A stretch of DNA of 64,000 bases from Aureococcus anophagefferens. Taxonomy: Eukaryota; Sar; Pelagophyceae; Pelagomonadales; Pelagomonadaceae. Every line of letters begins with the position of its first letter. The first letter of the stretch is position 1. Location of the stretch: the NCBI RefSeq assembly GCF_000186865.1, contig NW_008705561.1:1-64000 (forward strand), in the 5' to 3' direction. The position numbers and the translations under genes are program-made. Under the pieces are notes generated by a model. That model saw only the letters and a list, made by a program, of their open reading frames with translations, did not search any database and was not told the DNA's origin. This document shows positions 3,193 through 62,674 of this stretch, in pieces.

Positions 3193-5669
3193 ATGATGCT
3201 CGACTCGCTCGAGTGCGGCGGCTGTAATCAGCCCGAAGCCGTGTCGGAGCGCGGCGACGCGAGCGCGCCGCGACGACGGCGTTCGCGTTCGCGTCCGCGC
3301 CCGGGCGCCGATGGCTCCGAGATAGTCCACCTCCACGCGCGCATCGACGCCCTGACGAAGCAGCTCAACACCCGCGTCGCGGCGCTGGACCACCGCTGCG
3401 GCGAGCTGGAGCGGGAGGCGTCCGCCCGCGGCGGCGAGGCGCCCACGGCGCGCGAGAAGCCGGACGGCGGCGGCGACGACGAGCCGGACGGCGACGGCGA
3501 GCCCGGCGGGCTCAAGGAGACGGTCTGGGACTGCGTGCTCCTCAGCGTCTTCGTGTCCGGAGGGCGAGTCAACGAAAAGCCTCGTAGGTGCTCCTCGTCG
3601 GCGACAGGAAGCGCGTCGGCGTCGGCGCGAGCGCTTTCCTCGCGGGGCTCGTCGCGCTCAACGTCTTTGTCCAGCTCGTCTTCGTCATGCTCATCTTCGG
3701 CATCACGGAGCAGGCCGTCTCGCTGGACACGATTGACGAGCTCCGGTCCTGGCGAACCTCCGTCGCGCACGACTACCGGTACTACGACGCGCGGACGGAG
3801 CGGAGCCTCGCGGCGCGCGTCTGCGGCGGCGACGCGAGCCTCGAGATGAGCGGCGCGCAGGGCGAGTTCTACGAGCTGCTCACGCGGTATAGCGGGCGGA
3901 CCGCGGACGCGGCGAGCCTGACGACCGCGGGGACGACCATGTGCCTCTTGGCTCTCTGCGTCTGGTGCCTCCGGATCATCTGCGAGGCCAAGGACACCGC
4001 GGCGCTCATCTACGCCATTTCCCGCCTTCCGCGGGGGCCGTCGGCCTTCGCCGACGACGGCGACGGGGGGTTGGTGTTCGAGGGAATCTCCGACGGGCGG
4101 CGCGCCTGCTGCCTCGTCGCGCAGGCGGCGCGGCTCGGACTGGCGCTGACGCTGGGCGCGTGCGGATGCCTCTTCCTCGCGTTCACGCCGAGCGTCGAGG
4201 ATCTGATCATGAACGCCGTCGCCCTCGAAGTCGTGCTTGGCATCGACGAGCTCATCTACGAGGCCCTCGTCCCCGCGCACGTGAAGCGGCTCGCGGGCCG
4301 CGTCGCGGGCCTCCCCGCGCCGCGCCGCAGCATGCGCCTCGGCGGCGTCGGCCGCGAGGTCGCGGTCTTCGCGGTCTTCGTGTCCGTCGTCCTCGCCGTC
4401 TTCTTCGGCGTCGTCCTCCCGCAGAACCGGCTCTACATCCGCGCGCGGGACGCGCTCTGCAGCGGCGACCGCGACTTCGTCTACACCGTCGACGGCGTCG
4501 GCCAGACCGTCTGGAGCTTCACGCCGGACGCGGACCCGGCGCAGACCGCGGACTTCAACTACCCGGACGGCGGCTCGCTCCACGACGACGAGGTGGGCAT
4601 GGACGAGGTCGCCGGCTGGGACTACGGCCGCTACGTCGTCGAAGCCCTCCTGCGCCAGCAGGGCCGCGACGAGGCCCTGCAAGACTGCGGCCTCGACGTG
4701 TGCAAGGAGGTCGGCAAGAATGGCATCGTCGGGGAGTCCAAACACGACGCGCCGATGTGCTGCGTCACGCAGTGGGCGTCGGTGCCCAGCGTGGAAGGGG
4801 GGACGTTCTCGATTTCCGGCGCCCAGCTGCACGGCGCGGAGGACGGCGCCCGGCTCTGGAACCCGAGCTGCATCGACGTGATCGACGTCGAGCTCCCCTA
4901 CATCTCGCAGATCGCCGGCGCGCTCGCCGACGCGGTCGACGGCCGGGACGCCTGCGGCGGCTCATGTCCCGCGGGCGCGCCGTTCTGCGACGTCGCGACG
5001 GGCTCGTGCAAATACCCATCGTGCGACGACGTCGCGGCTTATTGCGGGGACAGCGGCGAGAGCGGCGTGCGCGCCCGTCAAATATGCCCCGGCGTCTGCG
5101 GCTGCGACGACCCCCGCGCGCCCCTCGCCCTCTCGTACCCGAGGGACGGCTGCGGCGAGTCGTGCACGCGCGGCGAAAAGTACCGCCAGGCCCTCGACGC
5201 GCTGCCCTGCGAGGACGTCGCGGTCGATGATCCGAATTTCGTCGCGTTCCTCGACGACTGGGAGCGAGCCGCCTGGGGCTGGATGGAGGACATCAAAGTC
5301 TTTTCTCTTATGTACTTCATCCCCGCCTTCCGCGACATGGGCTGCGGCTTCTTGAGCTCGAATCCCGTCGAAGACCCCGAGTGGCTCGAAACCCACTCGA
5401 TGTTGCCCTACACCTTCGGGGGCAACATGTGCGTCGAAGACGCGTCGTGGTTTCCGATCAAGCCCCTGTCCTACTTCTGCCCCGTCGCCTGCGCGTGCGC
5501 GTCCGGCGACCCGCACTGCCCCACGTCGTGCCCGGAAAGACGGGCCACGAACGCGTCCGACGCCTCGTCCTACTGCCCGGACTACCAGCGCTTCGGCCGA
5601 GACGGAACCTGGGATCCGCACGGCAACAGCACGTGCCCCACGGGGGTAGAACACGGGGTCTATAAATGA
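3193..5669 (+). CDS. Multi-pass membrane protein with cysteine-rich extracellular C-terminus
   Basis: Two exons, 3193-3552 and 3588-5669 (813 aa), separated by a 35-nt GT-AG intron (3553-3587) that joins LLSVF to VLLVGDRK. The N-terminus (to ~residue 115) is hydrophilic and acidic. Hydrophobic segments lie near residues 136-158, ~230, ~300-320 and ~377-397. The C-terminal ~250 residues are cysteine-rich with spacing (CGGSC, CPGVCGC, CDDVAAYC, CPVACAC) resembling ShKT-type disulfide modules. No catalytic motif is visible. It may be a cell-surface sensor or channel-like protein; this is inferred from topology only. Confidence 0.7.
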
Positions 5670-33412: not shown

Positions 33413-33630
33413 GGGTTTCGTTTTTTGGCCACCTGGGGGGGCCTTGGGGGGGTTTTGACGGGGGTGGGGGGGGTCGACTTCTGCTCGGGCCGGACGCGAC
33501 AAGCCTCCTGAAAACGGCGCCCCAGTACGCGTCCAGGCCGCCGGGGGCCGCCGGGACGGGGGGTGGGGGGGTTGCTGAGGGCCCATAAAACCCCCCCAAG
33601 GCCCCCGGGTGGGGCTAAAAAACGAAACCC
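33413..33630. mobile_element. 218-bp G-rich element with 44-bp terminal inverted repeats (MITE-like)
   Basis: The left arm 33413-33456 starts GGGTTTCGTTTTTT, and the reverse complement of the right arm 33587-33630 starts identically. The arms match at about 38 of 44 positions and share CCTTGGGGGGGTTTT at their inner ends. The interior is dominated by G runs of 5-8 on the plus strand in the left half. No clean target-site duplication is seen at the ends (flanks GTAGAGCT / TGGCAGCC). It sits 16 bp upstream of the next start codon. Confidence 0.65.
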
Positions 33631-33646: not shown

Positions 33647-35413
33647 ATGGCCCGGTGGGCCGCGTCCGCCGCGCTCGCGTGGATGACCGCCGCGGCGCCG
33701 ACGACCTTCGAGCTTGTCCAGTACGACGACCGCCCGCCGACGCTGTTTCACAACGCGACGAAAGCGTGGTGCGCGCAGTCGTCGTGCTGCGATGCCTACA
33801 CACTGCTGCACGCCTATGCGACGCCACCGGTGGGGCTGCCCGCGCTTTGGGCCCGTGTCAAGGCGCTTGCCGACCGCGTGGACGCGACGAGCGCGGCCGC
33901 CGTCGTCTGGCTCGACAGCGACGCCTTCTTCGTCGACCGGGACTGGTGCCCGGACTTTGGCGCCGCGAACGCGTCGGTGTCCGCGATCTTCTCCGCGGAT
34001 CCGCCGCCGTGGCGCAAGCCCGTGAACATCGGCTTCTTCGCGTTGAAGATGGACGCCGTCGGTCGCGCCATCGCGCGCGCGCACTGGGCGCTCTGGGCCA
34101 ACGTATCGGAGCACTGGGCCGGCTTCGGGCCGGCGGCCGAGTGCGGCCGGGCCGACTCGAACTGGCGCGTCTGCAAACACGGCGGCAAGTGGGCCAGCCA
34201 GGCCCAGCTCGTCGCCCACGTGCTCCCGCGCTTCGCCGGCGCCTACGCGACGCTGCCCCGCGACGCGCAGAACTCGAACCAGGACAACTGCCGGGGCACC
34301 GTGAAGCACCTCGACGCGAACGGGTGGAAGACGGAGCGCGAGCACGGGCTCCTCGAGCGCTGCGTCGCCGATTTTTTCACCGTGCCGACGGCGCCCCCCG
34401 TCCCGGCGGCCGCCGGCCTCGCCGCCCCGCCCGGACGAAGGATACCGGCGCTCACGCTCAGCTACGGCGCGCGGCTGCCGTTCGTCGCTCGCATGCTCCT
34501 GGCCTACGCCAGGCTCTGGCCCGACCACCCCTTCGTGTTCTACGTGCCCTTCAACGCGTCCGGCGCCTTCGATGCGCCCGTCTGGGGCCGGGTCAACGCG
34601 TCCTACGACGCGGCGTCGCTCGTCGCCGTGCCGTCGCCGCCGGGCATCCGCGCGACGATGGACGCGCTCCTCGGCGCCGCGGGCTGCGCCGACGGCGAGC
34701 TCATCTTCTGGGCGCCGGAGGACATCCAGCCCTGGGCCGTCGTCGACGCGCGGGGGCTCGCCGCGGTCGCCGCGCGCGCGCGCCGCGAGGCCGCGGCGGA
34801 CCCGGCCTACCTCGGCCTCGCGCTCGCCTACTCCGACGGCATGTGGAGCGGCTACGGCCGCCGCGGCGCCTCGGAGCGCGTCTGGGCCTTCCCCGGGGCG
34901 CCGCTCCTCTTCGTCGACCACGGCGAGCAGTTCGCGGGCGCGCCGCGGACGGCCGTCGGCACGGCCGCCGTCGCGCGCGTCGCGAAGCTCCCGCAGTCGA
35001 ACGCCTTCGTCTGGGCGCCCGGGTTCTGGCGCGCGGAGCTGCTGCGCGCCATCTTCCTCAACCCCCGCTTCGCGAAGCTCCGCGACCTCGAGAAGGCCGT
35101 CGGCGCGTTCTTCTCCGGCGGCGCGTTCGCGGAGCGCGTCGTCGAGCGGCTCGCGACGCCCGTCCTCGAGTTCGTCGAGGTCACGCACCGGGGCCAGGTC
35201 GCCGCCGCCGTGCTCGACGAGATGCGCGGCCTCGGCGCCGACGTCGGCGCCGAGTTCCTCCCGGCGATGGCGCCCACCAGCACCTTCGCGGCCGCGCGCG
35301 TGGGCGCTCTCAAGCGCGCGTACGCGACGCGCGCGCGGGACGAGCTCGAGGCCGCGCTCGTCGTCGAGGGGACGCCGCCCCTCGACCTCGCGCGCTCCTT
35401 CGGCTTCATCTAA
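33647..35413 (+). CDS. Two-domain DxD glycosyltransferase (GT34-like N-terminus)
   Basis: 588 aa from MARWAASAALAWMTAAAP. FELVQYDDRPPTLFHNATKAWC, then VVWLDSDAFFVDRDWC (~residue 85-100) and NIGFFALKMD are hallmarks of the GT34 galactosyl/xylosyltransferase fold: DSD for metal and nucleotide sugar, then the N-x-G-F-F block. A second region (residues ~270-588) holds LTLSYGARLPFVARMLLAYA, FVFYVPFNASGAFD and LIFWAPEDIQPW, resembling another nucleotide-sugar-dependent fold. The N-terminal domain is paralogous to that of the gene at 38765-41721. Convergent with the next gene, 6 bp between stops. Confidence 0.8.
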   Translation: MARWAASAALAWMTAAAPTTFELVQYDDRPPTLFHNATKAWCAQSSCCDAYTLLHAYATPPVGLPALWARVKALADRVDATSAAAVVWLDSDAFFVDRDWCPDFGAANASVSAIFSADPPPWRKPVNIGFFALKMDAVGRAIARAHWALWANVSEHWAGFGPAAECGRADSNWRVCKHGGKWASQAQLVAHVLPRFAGAYATLPRDAQNSNQDNCRGTVKHLDANGWKTEREHGLLERCVADFFTVPTAPPVPAAAGLAAPPGRRIPALTLSYGARLPFVARMLLAYARLWPDHPFVFYVPFNASGAFDAPVWGRVNASYDAASLVAVPSPPGIRATMDALLGAAGCADGELIFWAPEDIQPWAVVDARGLAAVAARARREAAADPAYLGLALAYSDGMWSGYGRRGASERVWAFPGAPLLFVDHGEQFAGAPRTAVGTAAVARVAKLPQSNAFVWAPGFWRAELLRAIFLNPRFAKLRDLEKAVGAFFSGGAFAERVVERLATPVLEFVEVTHRGQVAAAVLDEMRGLGADVGAEFLPAMAPTSTFAAARVGALKRAYATRARDELEAALVVEGTPPLDLARSFGFI

Positions 35414-38764: not shown

Positions 38765-41721
38765 ATGATGCGACGCTGGCCCTGGCTCCTGGCGTGCTGC
38801 AGCCGGGCCTTCGAGCTGTTCCAATACGACACGCGCCCGGCGACGCTCCTGCACAATGCGACGAGAGCGTGGTGCGCGCAGTCGCGGTGCTGCGACGCCT
38901 ACACCTTCGAGTCGTCGCGCCAGCGCGACGCGAGCGGCTTCGTGCTGCCGGCGCTCTGGGCGCGCATCAAGGCGCTGCGCGACCGCATGCTCGCGACGAC
39001 GGCGCCGGCCGTCGTCTGGGTCGACAGCGACGTCGTCTTCGTGGACGCGGGCTGGTGCCCGTCGTTTGACGGCGGCGCGTCGATGGTCGTCGCGCGCGAC
39101 CCCTACCCGTGGACGTCGTCGCTCAACCACGGCTTCTTCGCGCTGCGCAACGACGCCGCCGGGCGCGGCATCGCCGCGGCGCACTGGGACGCCTGGGCCA
39201 ACGTGTCCGCGGCGTACGTCGCGGAGGACGGCGAGTGCTTCGGGAACCGGACCGCGGCGCGCTGGAAGCAGTGCCGCGTCGGCGGGAAGTACGCGGGGCA
39301 GGGCGCCTTCAAGACCTACGTGCTGCCGCGCTTCCGGGCCGCCATCGCCATCGTGCCCGACAAGACGTTCCAGTCCGCGGACGCGCAGGAGTGCGACGGC
39401 GTCGTCAAGCACTTCGCCGCGGGCCGCACGGCCGAGGCGCTGCGCCTGCGCACGGTAGAGCGCTGCGCGGAGAGCTACTTCCGCGCGCCGGCCGGCGGGG
39501 CCGCGGCCGCGCCCGAGCGGCCGCGCGCGGCCCGCGGCGGCGGCGGCCGGCCGCTCGGCCGCGGCGCGTGGCTCGACGGCTTCCTGGAGCCCGCCGTCGC
39601 CGCGTCGCTCGCGCCGATCCCGGCGCGGGTGCGGCGATCCATCCTCGAGCGCACGGGGCTCGCGCCGACGCTCGTCGCCGCCGTCGGGCGCCTCGGCGGC
39701 GACGCGGCGCGGCGGCGGCTCCAGTACCGCACGCCCCTCTACCTCATCGACGACGCCGCGCGGCGCGTCGACATCGTCCTCGGCTTCCCGGGGACGTCGT
39801 TCGACGAGCAGGCCTGCGCGCACGTGTCGCTCCACGCGGCGCCGCGCGGCGGCGACGCGCTCCTCGCGGTCTGCGAGCGGTTCCGCTCGAAGAGCAAGCA
39901 CTCCAAGGGCCGCGTCGTGGCCGAGAAGTGGGCGACGGCGAGCGTGCGTCGACGCCGCGTCCGGCGCGCCGCCGCGCGCGACCGCCGCGTCGCAGGTCTT
40001 CTGGCTGCGCCTCGAGGCCACGGACGCGCGGCCCGCGGGCGCGGCGCGGCGGCGCACGTGCCTCGTCGTCGCGAACGTGACCAAGGCCTGGGACCTGCCC
40101 GGCCTCCCGGCGCACCGCACGGAGTTTGTGCGCCACTTCCGGGCCCACGCGCTCGTCTGGGACGGCGACGCCGTCGCGACGCTCGTCGGCTTCTCTGCGA
40201 CGTCGGCCGTCGTCGCGCCGGGCTTCGGCGGCGACGGCGCGCCGCGGTTCGCGCCGCTCCGCGTCGGCGGCCGCGACGTCGGTGTCGCCGACGCGGCGCC
40301 GCTCGCGCTCGCGGAGTGCGGTTTGCTATTGGCGCTCGCGCCGGTCGGGGGGGGGCGCTTCGTCGTCGTCCTCTTCCGGCCCGCGGCGCCGTTCGACATC
40401 GTCGCCGCGGGCGCGGAGCCGATGTGCCTGCCCGCGCCGGGCGACGGCGCGTGCGCCGCGGACGCGGAGGTCACGGCGCTCGCGCGTGGCGGCGGCGACG
40501 TCCTGGTGGCCTACACCGTCGGCGGCGCCGCGGCGGCCCGCGTCTCCGCGCCGCTCGCCGAGCTCGTCGCGCTCGCCGGCGGCGACGGCGCGTGCGCAGC
40601 GAACGCGCCCCCGCCGTTCGTCGAGCCGTCGTTCCGCGCGGCGGCGGTCGACGCGCCGCGCGCGGCCTACTGCTTCAGCGGCCACCCGCGCGCGCTGACG
40701 CATCCCGCGGTCGCGGCGTCGCTCCGGGACCGCGCGACCCAGCGTGCATCGACGAGTTTTGACCGGGAAAATTGTCATCGTCGCCGTCGCCGTAGGCGCG
40801 ATCGGCGCGTCCGGCGCGCACGTCGACGCGTTCTTCTACCTCGCGGACGACGACCCGGGGAGCAGCCACGGCCGGCCCAGCATCCGCGAGGCGCGGCAGC
40901 GCGTGCTCGACGTCGTCGCGTCGTTCCGGCCCAAGGACGCCTACGTGGGCCCGTTCGTCGCGGACGCGCTGCCGGACGCGCTGCCCGCGGGCCGGCCGTT
41001 CCCGAAGCAGTTCCGGCGGGGCTACTACTGGCCCAACAAGCGGCCGCCCTGGGCCTTCCAGGTCTGGTGGGCGACCTGGGAGAAGGTGCGGCGCTGCTTC
41101 GCGCTCGTCGAGGACTTCGAGCGGTCGACGCTGCGACGGCGCTACGACTTCGTCGCGCGGCTCCGGCCCGACCTCTGGTTCTTCGGCGCGCCGCCGCCGC
41201 TGGCGGCCATCTTCCCGCCGTCGGCGCCGCGCGGCGTCGCCTTCGCCGCCGGCGTCGTCGGCAGCTTCCGGCGCCCCGAGGCGGCGAACGACCACGTCGC
41301 GTGGGCGAGCCGCGACGCCGCGCCGGAGTACTTCCGCCTCGTCGACGCGCTCGCCGCCGGCGACGACTTCCGCGAGATGCTCGACTACGGCGGGACCTGG
41401 CTCCTCTGGCGCATGCGCAACCGGTCCGTGCCCGTGGCCGCGCCGACGCCGCTCGCGCCCTACACGGTCGCGCGCGCGTGCGACGGCGCCGCGCCGGGCC
41501 TCGCGGTCGCCGTGGAGTGCTACCGCTGGCGCGTCGACGAGGCGCGCCGCACGGCGAGCCCGCCCCTCGCGCTCGCCGACCTCCGCGCGGCCTACGACGC
41601 GTGCGCCGCGCGCTGGGACGAGGAGCGCGCGGCGCGGCCCGCGTCGACGTGCGCGGCGATCGACGACGCGCCGACATACAACACGTGGTCCTTCCCCGCG
41701 CGCGGCGACGCCGCGGCCTAA
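38765..41721 (+). CDS. Three-domain glycosyltransferase fusion
   Basis: Exons 38765-39943, 39996-40743 and 40796-41721 give 950 aa; both introns are 52 nt and GT-AG. Leader MMRRWPWLLACCSRAF. Domain 1 (FELFQYDTRPATLLHNATRAWC, VVWVDSDVVFVDAGWC, LNHGFFALRND) is GT34-like and paralogous to the gene at 33647. Domain 2 (~residues 300-620) is Ala/Val-rich and beta-like, with LYLIDDAARRVDIVLGF and LFRPAAPFDIVAAG, suggesting a beta-propeller. Domain 3 (AAYCFSGHPRALTHPAV, VDAFFYLADDD, YDFVARLRPDLWFF) belongs to the same motif class as the LLSG/RPDV proteins at 21697 and 49278. Convergent with the next gene with 2 bp between stops. Confidence 0.8.
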
Positions 41722-59601: not shown

Positions 59602-61255
59602 TTAAGTCTCCTTGCGCAGGCGGTCGACGAGCTCGACGAAGTCGACGTCGCCGTCCGCGGTCCGGGGGAGGACGTGCGCGCGCGGGCCGCCGAGGAAGTC
59701 GGGGACCTTGTGCGCGCCGCCGAGGATCTCCGCGGCGCGCTCCGTCGCGTCGGCGCCGCCGGGGAGGAGGAACATGCGCGCGCGCAGCGGCGGCGACATG
59801 AAGGGCGCCGCCAGCGCGAAGAGCACGCGGTTGATGCGGGACGCGTTGAGCGTCGTGAACGAGTTTCCGCGCTCGGGGAAGCCCTTGAGCCCCATCTCGA
59901 CAGCGCCGCGCACGACGCGGAGCCCCGTCCACGCCGGGATGCGGCTCGCCTCGTCGCCGGAGTGCTCGATGTAGGTGAAGCCGTACTTGGGGCGGCCGTT
60001 GGACGCGAGGCAGCAGAGCTCGAAGAGGCTCGCGACGGCGTCGACCCAGTCCTTGACGCCCGCACGGCCGAGGCCGCGCATGTCGATTTTCGCGGACCGG
60101 CACCAGACGACCGGCCGCTGGTCCGCGTCGCGGCCGTAGATGTAGAGCCCGCCCTCGCGGAGCGTGCGGCCCGCGCGGGCGAGGCGCTCGCTCGTCAGGA
60201 GCGGCATGTCCGCGTTGGACACGTCGGTGCCCGCCTCGTCCTCGATGACGCGCGCGAGGCGCGCGTCGACGACGCGCGTCGGACCCGCGTCCGCGGCCGC
60301 GGCCTTGTTCCGGTACTCGATGGCGAACCAGACCTTCCACTTGGCCCACTCCTCGTGGCGGTCCGCGCGGTTCAGGAGGCCCTGGAGCCTACCAAGCATG
60401 ACGGTGACGATTGCTCGTTGTTTTCCCACCCCAAATCTCTCGAACATCGTCACGGCCACAGGACGCTGCCTGGAGCCAGTTGTCGTCGTTCAGGGCCAGC
60501 GGTATGGGCGCGCCGCCGAGGTACGTCTTCACGACGAAGATCCGCAGCGCCTTCAGCTCGGGCGACCGCGTCTCGTCCTCCTCCTCGAGCAGCAAGGCCT
60601 TCGTCTTCTTCGGCGCGTCGGCGGCCTCGACCGCCTCGTCGGCGATCTTCGCCGCTCCGTCCGACGGGTCCTCCCGCGACGGCTCGACGGCGGCGGGCGC
60701 TGCGCTCGCCGCGAAGGCCCTCGAACCCAGGAGCGCCGCCGCCGCGCACGCCACGCCCGCCTCGGGTCCCAACGCCAGCGTCGTCACGGCCAGCAGCGTC
60801 CATAGCGCCGCCGCCGCCGCCGTCGACGCCGTCGTCCTCGGCGGCGGCGGCGGCGGCGGCTCCGGCGCGACCGCCGCCGGTTTGGGCGCGGGCTTTGGCG
60901 CGGGCGGCTTTGTTGCCGGCTCGCGCGCCTCGGCCGCGCTCCGCCGCGGCCGCGCGAGGAACCGGTCGACCTCTTCGCGCGGCGCGGCCGCGGCCGCGGC
61001 TTTGAGCCAGGCGTCGAGCGTCGCGCGGCGGCGTTCCAGCATGTCGGGGTCGAAGCCCCAGCCGCGGCGCGTCCTCGGCAGGGCCGGCACGCCGCCGCCG
61101 ACGCGCTCCCGTGCATTCCTGGCCAGCAAAGCGAACTCGCTGTGCCGTCGCTCGACCGACCACTGCTCGTCAGCCGCGCGACAGACGACCTTGTAGACCG
61201 CGTGGTTCTCCTCCTGGATCCACCGGAACGAATCCACGGAGCAGGCCACGGCCAT
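59602..61255 (-). CDS. PX - transmembrane - CRAL-TRIO (Sec14-like) lipid-binding protein
   Basis: Exons 61255-60477 and 60388-59602 (521 aa), joined across an introner (60389-60476, GC-AG) to give DDNWLQ-GLLNRADRHEEW. N-terminal PX-like domain (YKVVCRAADEQWSVERRHSE FALLAR). A Pro-rich linker and two hydrophobic stretches follow (AAAAALWTLLAVTTLALG, GVACAAAALLGSRAF; ~residues 145-190), then CRAL-TRIO: KVWFAIEYRNKA, LYIYGRDADQRPVVWCRSAK, YGFTYIEHSGDE, LNASRINRVLFALAAPFMSP. It would link phosphoinositide recognition to lipid transfer at a membrane. The PX phosphate-binding Arg is not certain. Confidence 0.85.
60389..60468 (-). mobile_element. Introner element, copy A (80 bp)
   Basis: On the minus strand it starts CAGCGTCCT and ends CTTGGTAG, flanked by an 8-bp target duplication GCTCCAGG (60469-60476 and 60381-60388). 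Internal inverted repeat GTGACGAT...ATCGTCAC. It shares the central GTTCGAGAGATTTGGGGTGG-like core with copy B. Splicing from the GC of the upstream duplication to the element's terminal AG restores TGG-CTC-CAG-GGC exactly. Confidence 0.93.
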
Positions 61256-61425
61256 GGAGTCGGAAAGTCAAGCTCCAACTGAGCAGAGGTGAGGGGCTGC
61301 CATCGGCAGAAAGTATAAGCCCTTCAAACACGGAATGATTTGCGATTTGCCTTCAGCGTCGACCTCATGGGATGAGCATGGGCATCTAGCATGGGCAGCC
61401 CATCGCGAGCATCTCGAACACAATC

Positions 61426-62674
61426 ATGAGCTTCGCGCTGCTGCTCCTGGTCGGCGCCGCCGCCGCGGATCGCTTCGGCCTGCGGCCGGACTGGCCGCTG
61501 GAGGGCCTGCGGCCGCTCGAGTCGCTGGCGCTCTGCGGCAACGCGACCTACAAGCCGCTGTGCGACCGCGCGGCGCGCTTCCGCGCGCTGATGCAGCAGC
61601 GCCCGCGCGCGCCGCCCCGCGCGCTGCCGGACCGAAGCGCGGCGCCGCTCCGCGTCCACGCGGTGCCGCCGAGCTGGCTGACGCGCGGCGCCGGCGGGCC
61701 CGACGTGGCGTGCGAGGTCCCCTGCGCGTACGCGGTCGGGCTCGGCGACGCGAACCTCACGCTCGGGAGCCTGCGGCCCGTCGGCGGCGCGCCCGCCGCC
61801 GCCGTGCTCAACTTCGAGAGCACGACGAAGCACTGGCGGCCGCTCGCGCGCGGCGGCGCGCTCGCGCTCACGTACAGCCGCTACGCGGACGTCGTCTACG
61901 AGTTCCACCGGCGCGAGGACGTCGACTGGGCCGCGCGCGCGGCGCCGCCGCGGCCGCGGACGCCGGCGTCCCGCGGCGGTCGACGGCGCGAGGCTCGGAG
62001 CGCGCGTCCGTAGGCGGACGCCGTCGTCGGCGGTCTACGTGAGCCACTGCGTCCCCTGGCGCGCGGCGTTCCTCGCGGAGCTCGAGGCCGCGGGCGTCGC
62101 CCTCGAGCGCCACGGCGCCTGCGCGCCCGGCCGGCGGCGCGAGGCCTGCGGCGCGCGGACGGACTTCAACAAGCGCTGCAAGATCGACGGTCTCGCCGCG
62201 CACCCCTTCGCGATCACCAGCGTCCTTGCGGCCGTGACGATTTTCGAGAGATTTGGGGTGGGAACACAGCGAGAAATTGTCATGCTTGGCAGGCGATCAC
62301 GGTCGAGAACTCGCTCCTCGACGCGCGTCCGCCGGCGCCGGTCCCTCCGCGAGGCCCGACGCGCGCCCTCGCAGGACTACGTCACCGAGAAGTGGAGCCA
62401 CGCGTGGGCCTCGGGCGCCGTCGTCGTCTACGTCGGATCGCCGCTCATCCACGAGCGGGAAGCGGACTACCCGCCCTTCATCAACGGGCTCGACTTCGCC
62501 GGCCCGGGCGCGCTCGCCGCCTACCTCCACGAGGTCCTCGCGAACGACACGCTCTGGCGGCGCTACGCGGCGCGCGGCCCGCCGCCGAACGCGACGCGCG
62601 CGTCGGGGCGCCACTGGGGCGGCATCACCCTCGACCGCCACGTCTGCGACGCGTGCTTGGCTTTTTACGGGTGA
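61426..62674 (+). CDS. GT10 alpha-1,3/4-fucosyltransferase-like protein
   Basis: Four exons: 61426-61955, 62014-62209, 62293-62322 (30 nt) and 62375-62674, 351 aa. All three introns (58, 83, 52 nt) are GC-AG and each is needed for frame. Leader MSFALLLLVGAAAADRF. VLNFESTTKHWRPLARGG then LALTYSRYADVVYEFHRRED correspond to the GT10 'MSYR.DSD' region; SSAVYVSHCVPWRAAFLAEL to 'WV.SNC....R..Y...L'. HPFAITVENSLLDDYVTEKW is the diagnostic alpha3-FucT motif. Acts on secreted glycans in the Golgi. One intron is an introner and another has a 10-nt target duplication. Confidence 0.88.
61956..62013 (+). mobile_element. GC-AG intron with 10-nt flanking duplication (likely older introner insertion)
   Basis: GCGGACGCCG occurs at the donor (61956-61965) and again immediately after the acceptor TAG (62014-62023). 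Splicing removes one copy plus the 48-nt insert and gives RPRTPSSAVYV. The insert no longer resembles copies A and B in sequence. Confidence 0.7.
62218..62292 (+). mobile_element. Introner element, copy B (75 bp)
   Basis: It starts CAGCGTCCTTG and ends CTTGGCAG, flanked by a perfect 8-bp duplication GCGATCAC (62210-62217 and 62293-62300). The sequence is nearly the same as copy A in an unrelated gene. Removal of one duplication copy plus the element (62210-62292) restores PFAITVENSL of the GT10 signature, using a GC donor in the duplicated target and the element's own AG acceptor. Confidence 0.94.

What the first reader, a model, noticed from the sequence alone, without database searches (positions are those of the whole stretch)
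60389..62300. Two near-identical transposon-born introns (introners) in adjacent unrelated genes
Copies A (60389-60468, minus) and B (62218-62292, plus) share start CAGCGTCCT, core TTCGAGAGATTTGGGGTGG and end CTTGGYAG. Each has a perfect 8-bp target duplication (GCTCCAGG; GCGATCAC). In both cases reading frame and conserved protein motifs (CRAL-TRIO NWLQGLLN; GT10 PFAITVEN) are restored only if the duplicated target supplies the donor and the element the AG acceptor. This matches the mechanism published for introner elements of Micromonas and Aureococcus. High similarity means recent activity.
Basis: partly seen in the sequence, partly recalled or inferred. Interest (0 to 1): 0.9.

Follow-up and report, generated by a model that had tools for sequence, protein, structure and literature searches.

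The report
Transposon-born introns borrowing their donor site
Short jumping DNA pieces in the brown-tide alga Aureococcus anophagefferens land in genes and probably become introns at once, because the eight bases they duplicate on landing can serve as the start of the intron, most often an unusual GC start.

Summary
Confirmed: copies A and B are real, near-identical, each with a perfect 8-bp duplication. Protein matches place the genome in Aureococcus anophagefferens. The core has 238 copies genome-wide (reversed control 0). Of 99 copies examined, 84 carry an 8-bp duplication at least 6/8 identical. With 150-bp flanks, 73 of these 84 lie in sense in a reading frame that continues once element plus one duplication is removed, and none in antisense; random window positions give 36% and 36%. 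The duplication starts GC (56) or GT (26) on both sides. These are introners, a known kind already reported in this species.

That is the published model for an Aureococcus sp. family. No RNA was available.

Two thirds of donors are GC, near the supply in coding DNA (0.78). This offers a simple source for the 39.6% GC-AG introns once called an enigma in this alga. "Recent activity" is weakly supported: other public assemblies of the species show both insertions.

The parts
60389..60468 (-). Introner copy A, 80 bp; predicted intron is 60389-60476 (88 nt, GC-AG)
60469..60476 (-). A, upstream duplication GCTCCAGG, predicted GC donor
60381..60388 (-). A, downstream duplication GCTCCAGG, predicted start of next exon
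62210..62217 (+). B, upstream duplication GCGATCAC, predicted GC donor
62218..62292 (+). Introner copy B, 75 bp; predicted intron is 62210-62292 (83 nt, GC-AG)
62293..62300 (+). B, downstream duplication GCGATCAC, predicted start of next exon
61956..62021 (+). Copy C with duplications GCGGACGC (61956-61963, 62014-62021) around a 50-bp element (61964-62013); GC-rich, core lost; predicted intron 61956-62013
62323..62374 (+). Intron D of the GT10 gene, 52 nt, GC-AG, no duplication seen
3535..3595 (+). Element E, 45 bp, with family-like ends, between duplications GTGCTCCT (3535-3542, 3588-3595); predicted intron 3535-3587, GT-AG
59602..61255 (-). Host gene of A: PX / CRAL-TRIO domain protein
61426..62674 (+). 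Host gene of B and C: glycosyltransferase family 10

Best explanation
A and B belong to a non-autonomous DNA-transposon (MITE-like) introner family of Aureococcus anophagefferens, typically 80 bp, with imperfect terminal inverted repeats. Insertion duplicates 8 bp of target. In a gene, in sense, where that 8-mer begins with G and a pyrimidine, the upstream 8-mer serves as splice donor (GC in about two thirds, GT in a third) and the element's terminal AG as acceptor, so 8-mer plus element are removed and the old mRNA is restored. Shown from sequence: copies, duplications, sense-only placement, frame continuity, and the donor choice in six indel copies. Inferred: that splicing happens, and that a transposase, not identified here, moves the element as DNA.
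For: 238 core matches, reversed control 0. 84 of 99 aligned copies with 8-mers at least 6/8 identical, 56 of them 8/8; identity drops to background just outside the 8 bp. Mismatched flank pairs reach 6/8 in 448 of 9702. 73 of 84 sense and frame-continuous, 0 antisense; random positions 36% and 36%. Read-through gives a frameshift or stop in 75 of 76. 8-mers start GC/GC in 56 and GT/GT in 26 of 84; only 2 of 35 mismatches fall on their first two bases, P 0.003. Six indel copies keep frame only with this donor. Homologues P0006 and P0005 align without a gap at the B and A sites. Imperfect inverted repeat 14 of 24, reached by 5 of 20000 shuffles.
Against: No RNA. The internal GT is kept in 83 of 84 copies. 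Two of the 84 have an upstream 8-mer that does not start GY as aligned (L006 GA; L051, where a 1-nt shift gives GT). The donors show no U1 consensus at +3 to +6. Hardly any copy lies outside coding sequence, which blind insertion would not predict. No transposase was linked to the ends.
Confidence: 0.85

Rival explanations
1. The element carries both splice sites: donor GT at bases 5-6 (CAGC|GT) and AG at its end. Splicing leaves 12 nt (8-bp duplication plus CAGC), adding four residues without a frameshift.
For: Published for family 4 of an Aureococcus sp. metagenome assembly (PMC9860276, Fig. 2F legend). NCBI models P0001 and P0002 of gene A read NWLQ-AALQ-GLLN, which is this model. Internal GT in 83 of 84 copies. 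Frame continuity of copies without indels cannot tell it from the best explanation.
Against: Six copies with indels in the 12-nt stretch would be frameshifted. It does not explain why the 8-mer starts GY on both sides in 82 of 84 or why its first two bases are spared from change. Element bases 1, 3, 5 and 7 are kept in all 84, so GT conservation can come from end recognition. Gene predictors favour GT-AG (general knowledge).
Confidence: 0.1
2. RNA-based gain: a spliced intron is reverse-spliced into another transcript and copied back into the genome.
For: Would explain sense-only, gene-only placement.
Against: The first eight intron bases match the local downstream exon in each copy, not each other; reverse splicing would carry the donor's bases along and make no local duplication. 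Inverted ends fit DNA transposition.
Confidence: 0.03
3. Ordinary MITE insertions that stay in the mRNA or mark pseudogenes.
For: No RNA data contradict it directly.
Against: Retention would shift the frame or add a stop in 75 of 76 frame-matched copies, and antisense copies should be as common as sense ones (0 seen).
Confidence: 0.01

Closest known systems
Introner elements of Aureococcus anophagefferens and Micromonas pusilla (Huff, Zilberman and Roy 2016, Nature; not held; content recalled)
   Same: As recalled: short non-autonomous DNA transposons, one splice site in the element, the other co-opted from the duplicated target; same species.
   Different: A length near 210 bp is cited for the A. 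anophagefferens elements (PMC9481584 passage); here typically 80 bp. No sequence comparison was possible.
Introner family 4 of Aureococcus sp. TARA_AOS_82_MAG_00129 (Gozashti et al. 2022, PMC9860276; passages read)
   Same: 8-bp duplication; example intron spans 3289-3365 (77 bp); 4 bp of element between duplication and internal donor. An 80-bp element here would give 76 nt by that model, so it may be the same or a sister family.
   Different: There both splice sites are placed in the element and 12 bp are added to the mRNA; here indel copies point to the duplication as donor. Sequence not compared.
Introners of Symbiodinium microadriaticum (PMC9860276, Fig. 2B legend)
   Same: Element carries the 3' site, donor comes from the duplication; inverted repeats.
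   Different: 4-bp duplication; no sequence relation tested.
hAT transposons and their MITEs (recalled)
   Same: 8-bp duplication; 5' end CAGCG fits the recalled CARNG start.
   Different: 3' end GGTAG does not mirror it; no transposase found (control silent).

Membership tests
Introner (transposon-derived intron family) | Many near-identical copies at unrelated gene positions | tested here: met
   238 core matches, control 0; 99 copies aligned from 98 loci
Introner (transposon-derived intron family) | Copy boundaries coincide with intron boundaries that restore the frame | tested here: met
   73 of 84 frame-continuous in sense, 0 antisense, against 36% and 36% at random positions
Introner (transposon-derived intron family) | Spliced from mRNA | not testable with these tools
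   no RNA data in reach
Introner (transposon-derived intron family) | Insertion absent from an orthologue or sister strain | tested here: inconclusive
DNA-transposon (MITE-type) introner | Target-site duplication | tested here: met
   84 of 99 at least 6/8; exactly 8 bp by the position profile
DNA-transposon (MITE-type) introner | Terminal inverted repeats | tested here: met
   imperfect: 14 of 24 bases of the consensus, 5 of 20000 shuffles reach it
Introner with donor taken from the duplication | Donor dinucleotide at the start of the duplication, acceptor at the element's end | tested here: met
   GY on both sides in 82 of 84; six indel copies keep frame only this way; by sequence only
Introner carrying both splice sites (PMC9860276 Fig. 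2F) | Frame kept when splicing at the internal GT | tested here: not met
   kept where there is no indel, lost in all six copies in which an indel was seen
hAT superfamily | hAT transposase in the genome; CARNG...CNYTG ends (recalled) | tested here: inconclusive
   PF05699 no match but control genomes silent too; 5' end fits, 3' end does not

The most novel reading that the evidence does not exclude
Because these introners take their donor from whatever GY-starting 8-mer they land on, and coding DNA here offers GC about 3.5 times as often as GT, introner gain by itself created much of the exceptional GC-AG intron share of A. anophagefferens (39.6%, called an enigma in PMC3033335), without any change of U1. 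The spliceosome accepts GC almost on a par with GT and leaves it as it is: of 82 duplications starting GY on both sides, none has switched between GC and GT.
Probability: 0.6. Interest if true: 0.6.

Novelty: already known. Interest (0 to 1): 0.45.

Why it matters
Introners are the best-documented route of mass intron gain. This family gives more than 200 sequence-marked insertions in one alga in which donor choice, GC tolerance and sense-only survival can be counted. If right, it corrects the splice model of a family that may already be in print, and of public gene models that add four residues (P0001, P0002) or read into the element (P0007, P0008). It also offers a simple, testable origin for the GC-AG excess that was called an enigma in 2011.

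Tried and rejected
Autonomous partner: PF05699 (hAT), PF18758 (KDZ) and PF12762 (IS1595) gave no match; for hAT and KDZ the 14 control genomes were silent too, so absence is not shown. PF13359 gave four matches at three places, none near a listed element end, but the end lists show only the first 100 places. Same-strand pairs of listed ends lay 156, 190, 566, 1294, 3204 and 4132 bp apart. Only the 190-bp one was also seen as an element with a perfect duplication in a fetched locus (L070); the longest may be two separate introns.

RNA hairpin as a splicing aid: A and B fold no better than shuffles (z -0.57 and -0.16); dropped.

Age from duplication mismatches: no correlation with identity to the consensus (Spearman -0.08, P 0.49). 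Codon positions of 31 mismatches were even (8, 11, 12 at first, second, third): as expected if the upstream 8-mer is not coding, but too few to weigh.

A loose scan for further copies was mostly chance matches in GC-rich sequence and was not counted. A window-wide scan for any GY...AG insert with a perfect 8-mer and restored frame gave 4 of 74, not clearly above its controls (CT 4 of 63, GT 3 of 60). I use from it only the three inserts with family ends (A, C, E); the fourth (1230-1423) I set aside, and B was missed there because intron D lies close.

Dropped rows: 15 of 99 aligned copies are outside the 84 (duplication under 6/8, or no AG at the called end): L023, L032, L048, L050 twice, L067, L070, L071, L073 twice, L087, L093, L094, L095, L096. 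L048 and L096 are ends mis-called by the aligner; L023, L093, L094, L095 are the indel copies examined by hand; L067 and L087, also by hand, do not discriminate. The 98 loci come from the first-listed, least diverged of the 238 places, so diverged copies are under-sampled. Of the 11 among the 84 that were not frame-continuous at 150 bp, some have another intron close by (B itself, L051).

Full report
WHAT IS THERE. They share a 22-base core exactly, which has a mean of 0 matches in 100 shuffles of the window. A sits in a gene for a PX/CRAL-TRIO protein, B in a glycosyltransferase-10 gene. Removing the element and one 8-mer joins the frames into NWLQGLLN and PFAITVEN. Both have perfect 8-mers and a frame that is continuous after removal. 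With C, B and a further GC-AG intron D (62323-62374) removed, the GT10 gene gives a 351-aa protein that aligns to homologue P0006 at 84% identity over 340 aa without a gap at any of the three junctions. At the A site the homologue P0005 (48%) also aligns without a gap.

WHOSE GENOME. The closest proteins that bear a source's name are from Aureococcus anophagefferens. The assembly held is 49.05 Mb, near the 49.9 Mb of strain CCMP1851 (PMC11237714, first part of the text read). The strain of the window is not known to me.

GENOME-WIDE. The core occurs 238 times with up to 3 mismatches, 118 and 120 on the two strands, reversed control 0. The 5' end occurs 504 times and the 3' end 316 times with up to 2 mismatches, controls 0. 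I held 98 loci from the first-listed places and aligned 99 distinct copies. Eighty-four have 8-mers at least 6/8 identical and an AG end: 56 at 8/8, 21 at 7/8, 7 at 6/8. Over all 99, the two 8-mers agree at 80-88% at each position; the control is 25-39% at positions 3-8 and 51% at position 2, but 88% at position 1, which is nearly always G. Outside the eight positions agreement equals the control. Mismatched pairs of flanks reach 6/8 in 448 of 9702. The ends form an imperfect inverted repeat, 14 of 24, reached by 5 of 20000 shuffles.

THEY BEHAVE AS INTRONS. With a codon model trained on the window and the fetched loci, 73 of the 84 have coding sequence on both sides, in the strand of the element and in one continuous frame after removal; none is antisense on both sides; 4 are sense but not continuous and 7 have different strands on the two sides. 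Three thousand random positions of the window give 36% sense and 36% antisense. Allowing any of four flank sizes, 79 of 84 are continuous; this looser count has no control. Retaining the insert would shift the frame or give a stop in 75 of 76 frame-matched copies. No RNA could be examined.

WHICH DONOR. Removing the 8-mer plus element, and splicing from the GT at element bases 5-6, both keep frame, because they differ by 12 nt. The second is the model in print for an Aureococcus sp. family (PMC9860276, Fig. 2F legend) and in the NCBI models P0001 and P0002 of gene A. Three results favour the 8-mer. First, it begins GC on both sides in 56 and GT on both sides in 26 of 84 copies. Second, of 35 mismatches between the two 8-mers only 2 fall on the first two bases (P 0.003). 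Third, all six copies in which I saw an indel between the 8-mer's start and the internal GT (L023, L093, L094, L095, two in L051) keep frame only with the 8-mer as donor. In L051 only that choice gives an unbroken helicase-like stretch (GDTKQLPP...LRVQYRMPPAL; the label is recalled). These six were aligned by eye, L095 has a weak coding signal, and one of the two in L051 lacks the core and is not among the 99. Against: the internal GT is kept in 83 of 84, though element bases 1, 3, 5 and 7 are kept in all 84, as ends needed for transposition might be. For A and B themselves neither model is excluded by frame; the choice rests on the family and on the homologues' length.

GC DONORS. GC makes up 56 of the 82 GY pairs (68%); the supply in coding sequence of the window is 78%, a slight preference for GT (binomial P 0.046). 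None of the 82 has switched between GC and GT, while the other six positions differ at 33 of 504. Bases +3 to +6 show no U1 consensus; the base before the donor is G in 45 of 84. PMC3033335 (passages) reports 39.6% GC-AG introns in this species with a normal U1 5' end and calls their origin an enigma; the other outlier there, M. pusilla, also has introners (PMC9860276). I found no paper that makes the link in the searches and in the passages seen of PMC7789003, PMC10228655, PMC6310983 and PMC3488318. PMC9860276 notes up to 50% GC donors in introner families. Huff et al. 2016 was not readable, so I cannot say that the link is unpublished. The GC share of non-introner introns was not measured here.

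UNEXPLAINED. If insertion were blind, many survivors should lie outside genes or start with other bases. Almost none of the copies examined do. Either insertion is aimed at genes and GY, or other copies are lost. PMC9860276 reports enrichment in genes in 161 of 175 genomes, so this is general.

AGE. Median pairwise identity is 84% in 800 sampled pairs. Gene models from two other public assemblies (tags JL722, JL721) contain read-through of B (P0007, P0008). Models P0001 and P0002 carry the trace of A, and an environmental protein (P0004) reads into an A element that differs slightly. So both insertions are shared beyond this assembly; whether the family is still active is not shown.

VERDICT. 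A real introner family of a known kind, in a species already known for it, possibly the very family in print under another splice model. The value lies in the donor evidence and in the GC-AG link.

Noticed in passing
3535-3595: Fourth insert in the window: 45-bp element with family-like ends and a perfect 8-mer GTGCTCCT; removal restores a frame of a hydrophobic protein.
   Followed up: yes
62323-62374: A 52-nt intron of the GT10 gene also starts with GC but shows no duplication; it could be an older, decayed introner or an unrelated GC-AG intron.
   Followed up: partly
1-175: The window begins with CCCTAA telomere repeats, so it is a chromosome end.
   Followed up: no
33705-33965 and 38808-39074: Two stretches about 5.1 kb apart are 79-85% identical, probably tandem paralogous genes.
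   Followed up: no
33413-33630: Inverted repeat with 44-nt arms, 86% complementary, 130 nt apart.
   Followed up: no
L032, copy near locus position 1930: Flanks GCGGGAAG and GTTCCCGC are near inverted complements instead of a direct duplication, yet the frame is continuous.
   Followed up: no
L051, about 1470-1700: Two introners about 50 bases apart in one helicase-like gene leave a short exon between them.
   Followed up: partly
G000 C1:1844908-1845419, C6:2536846-2537241, C34:12456-12965: DDE_Tnp_4 (Harbinger-type, recalled) transposase matches elsewhere in the genome; not linked to the introner ends.
   Followed up: no
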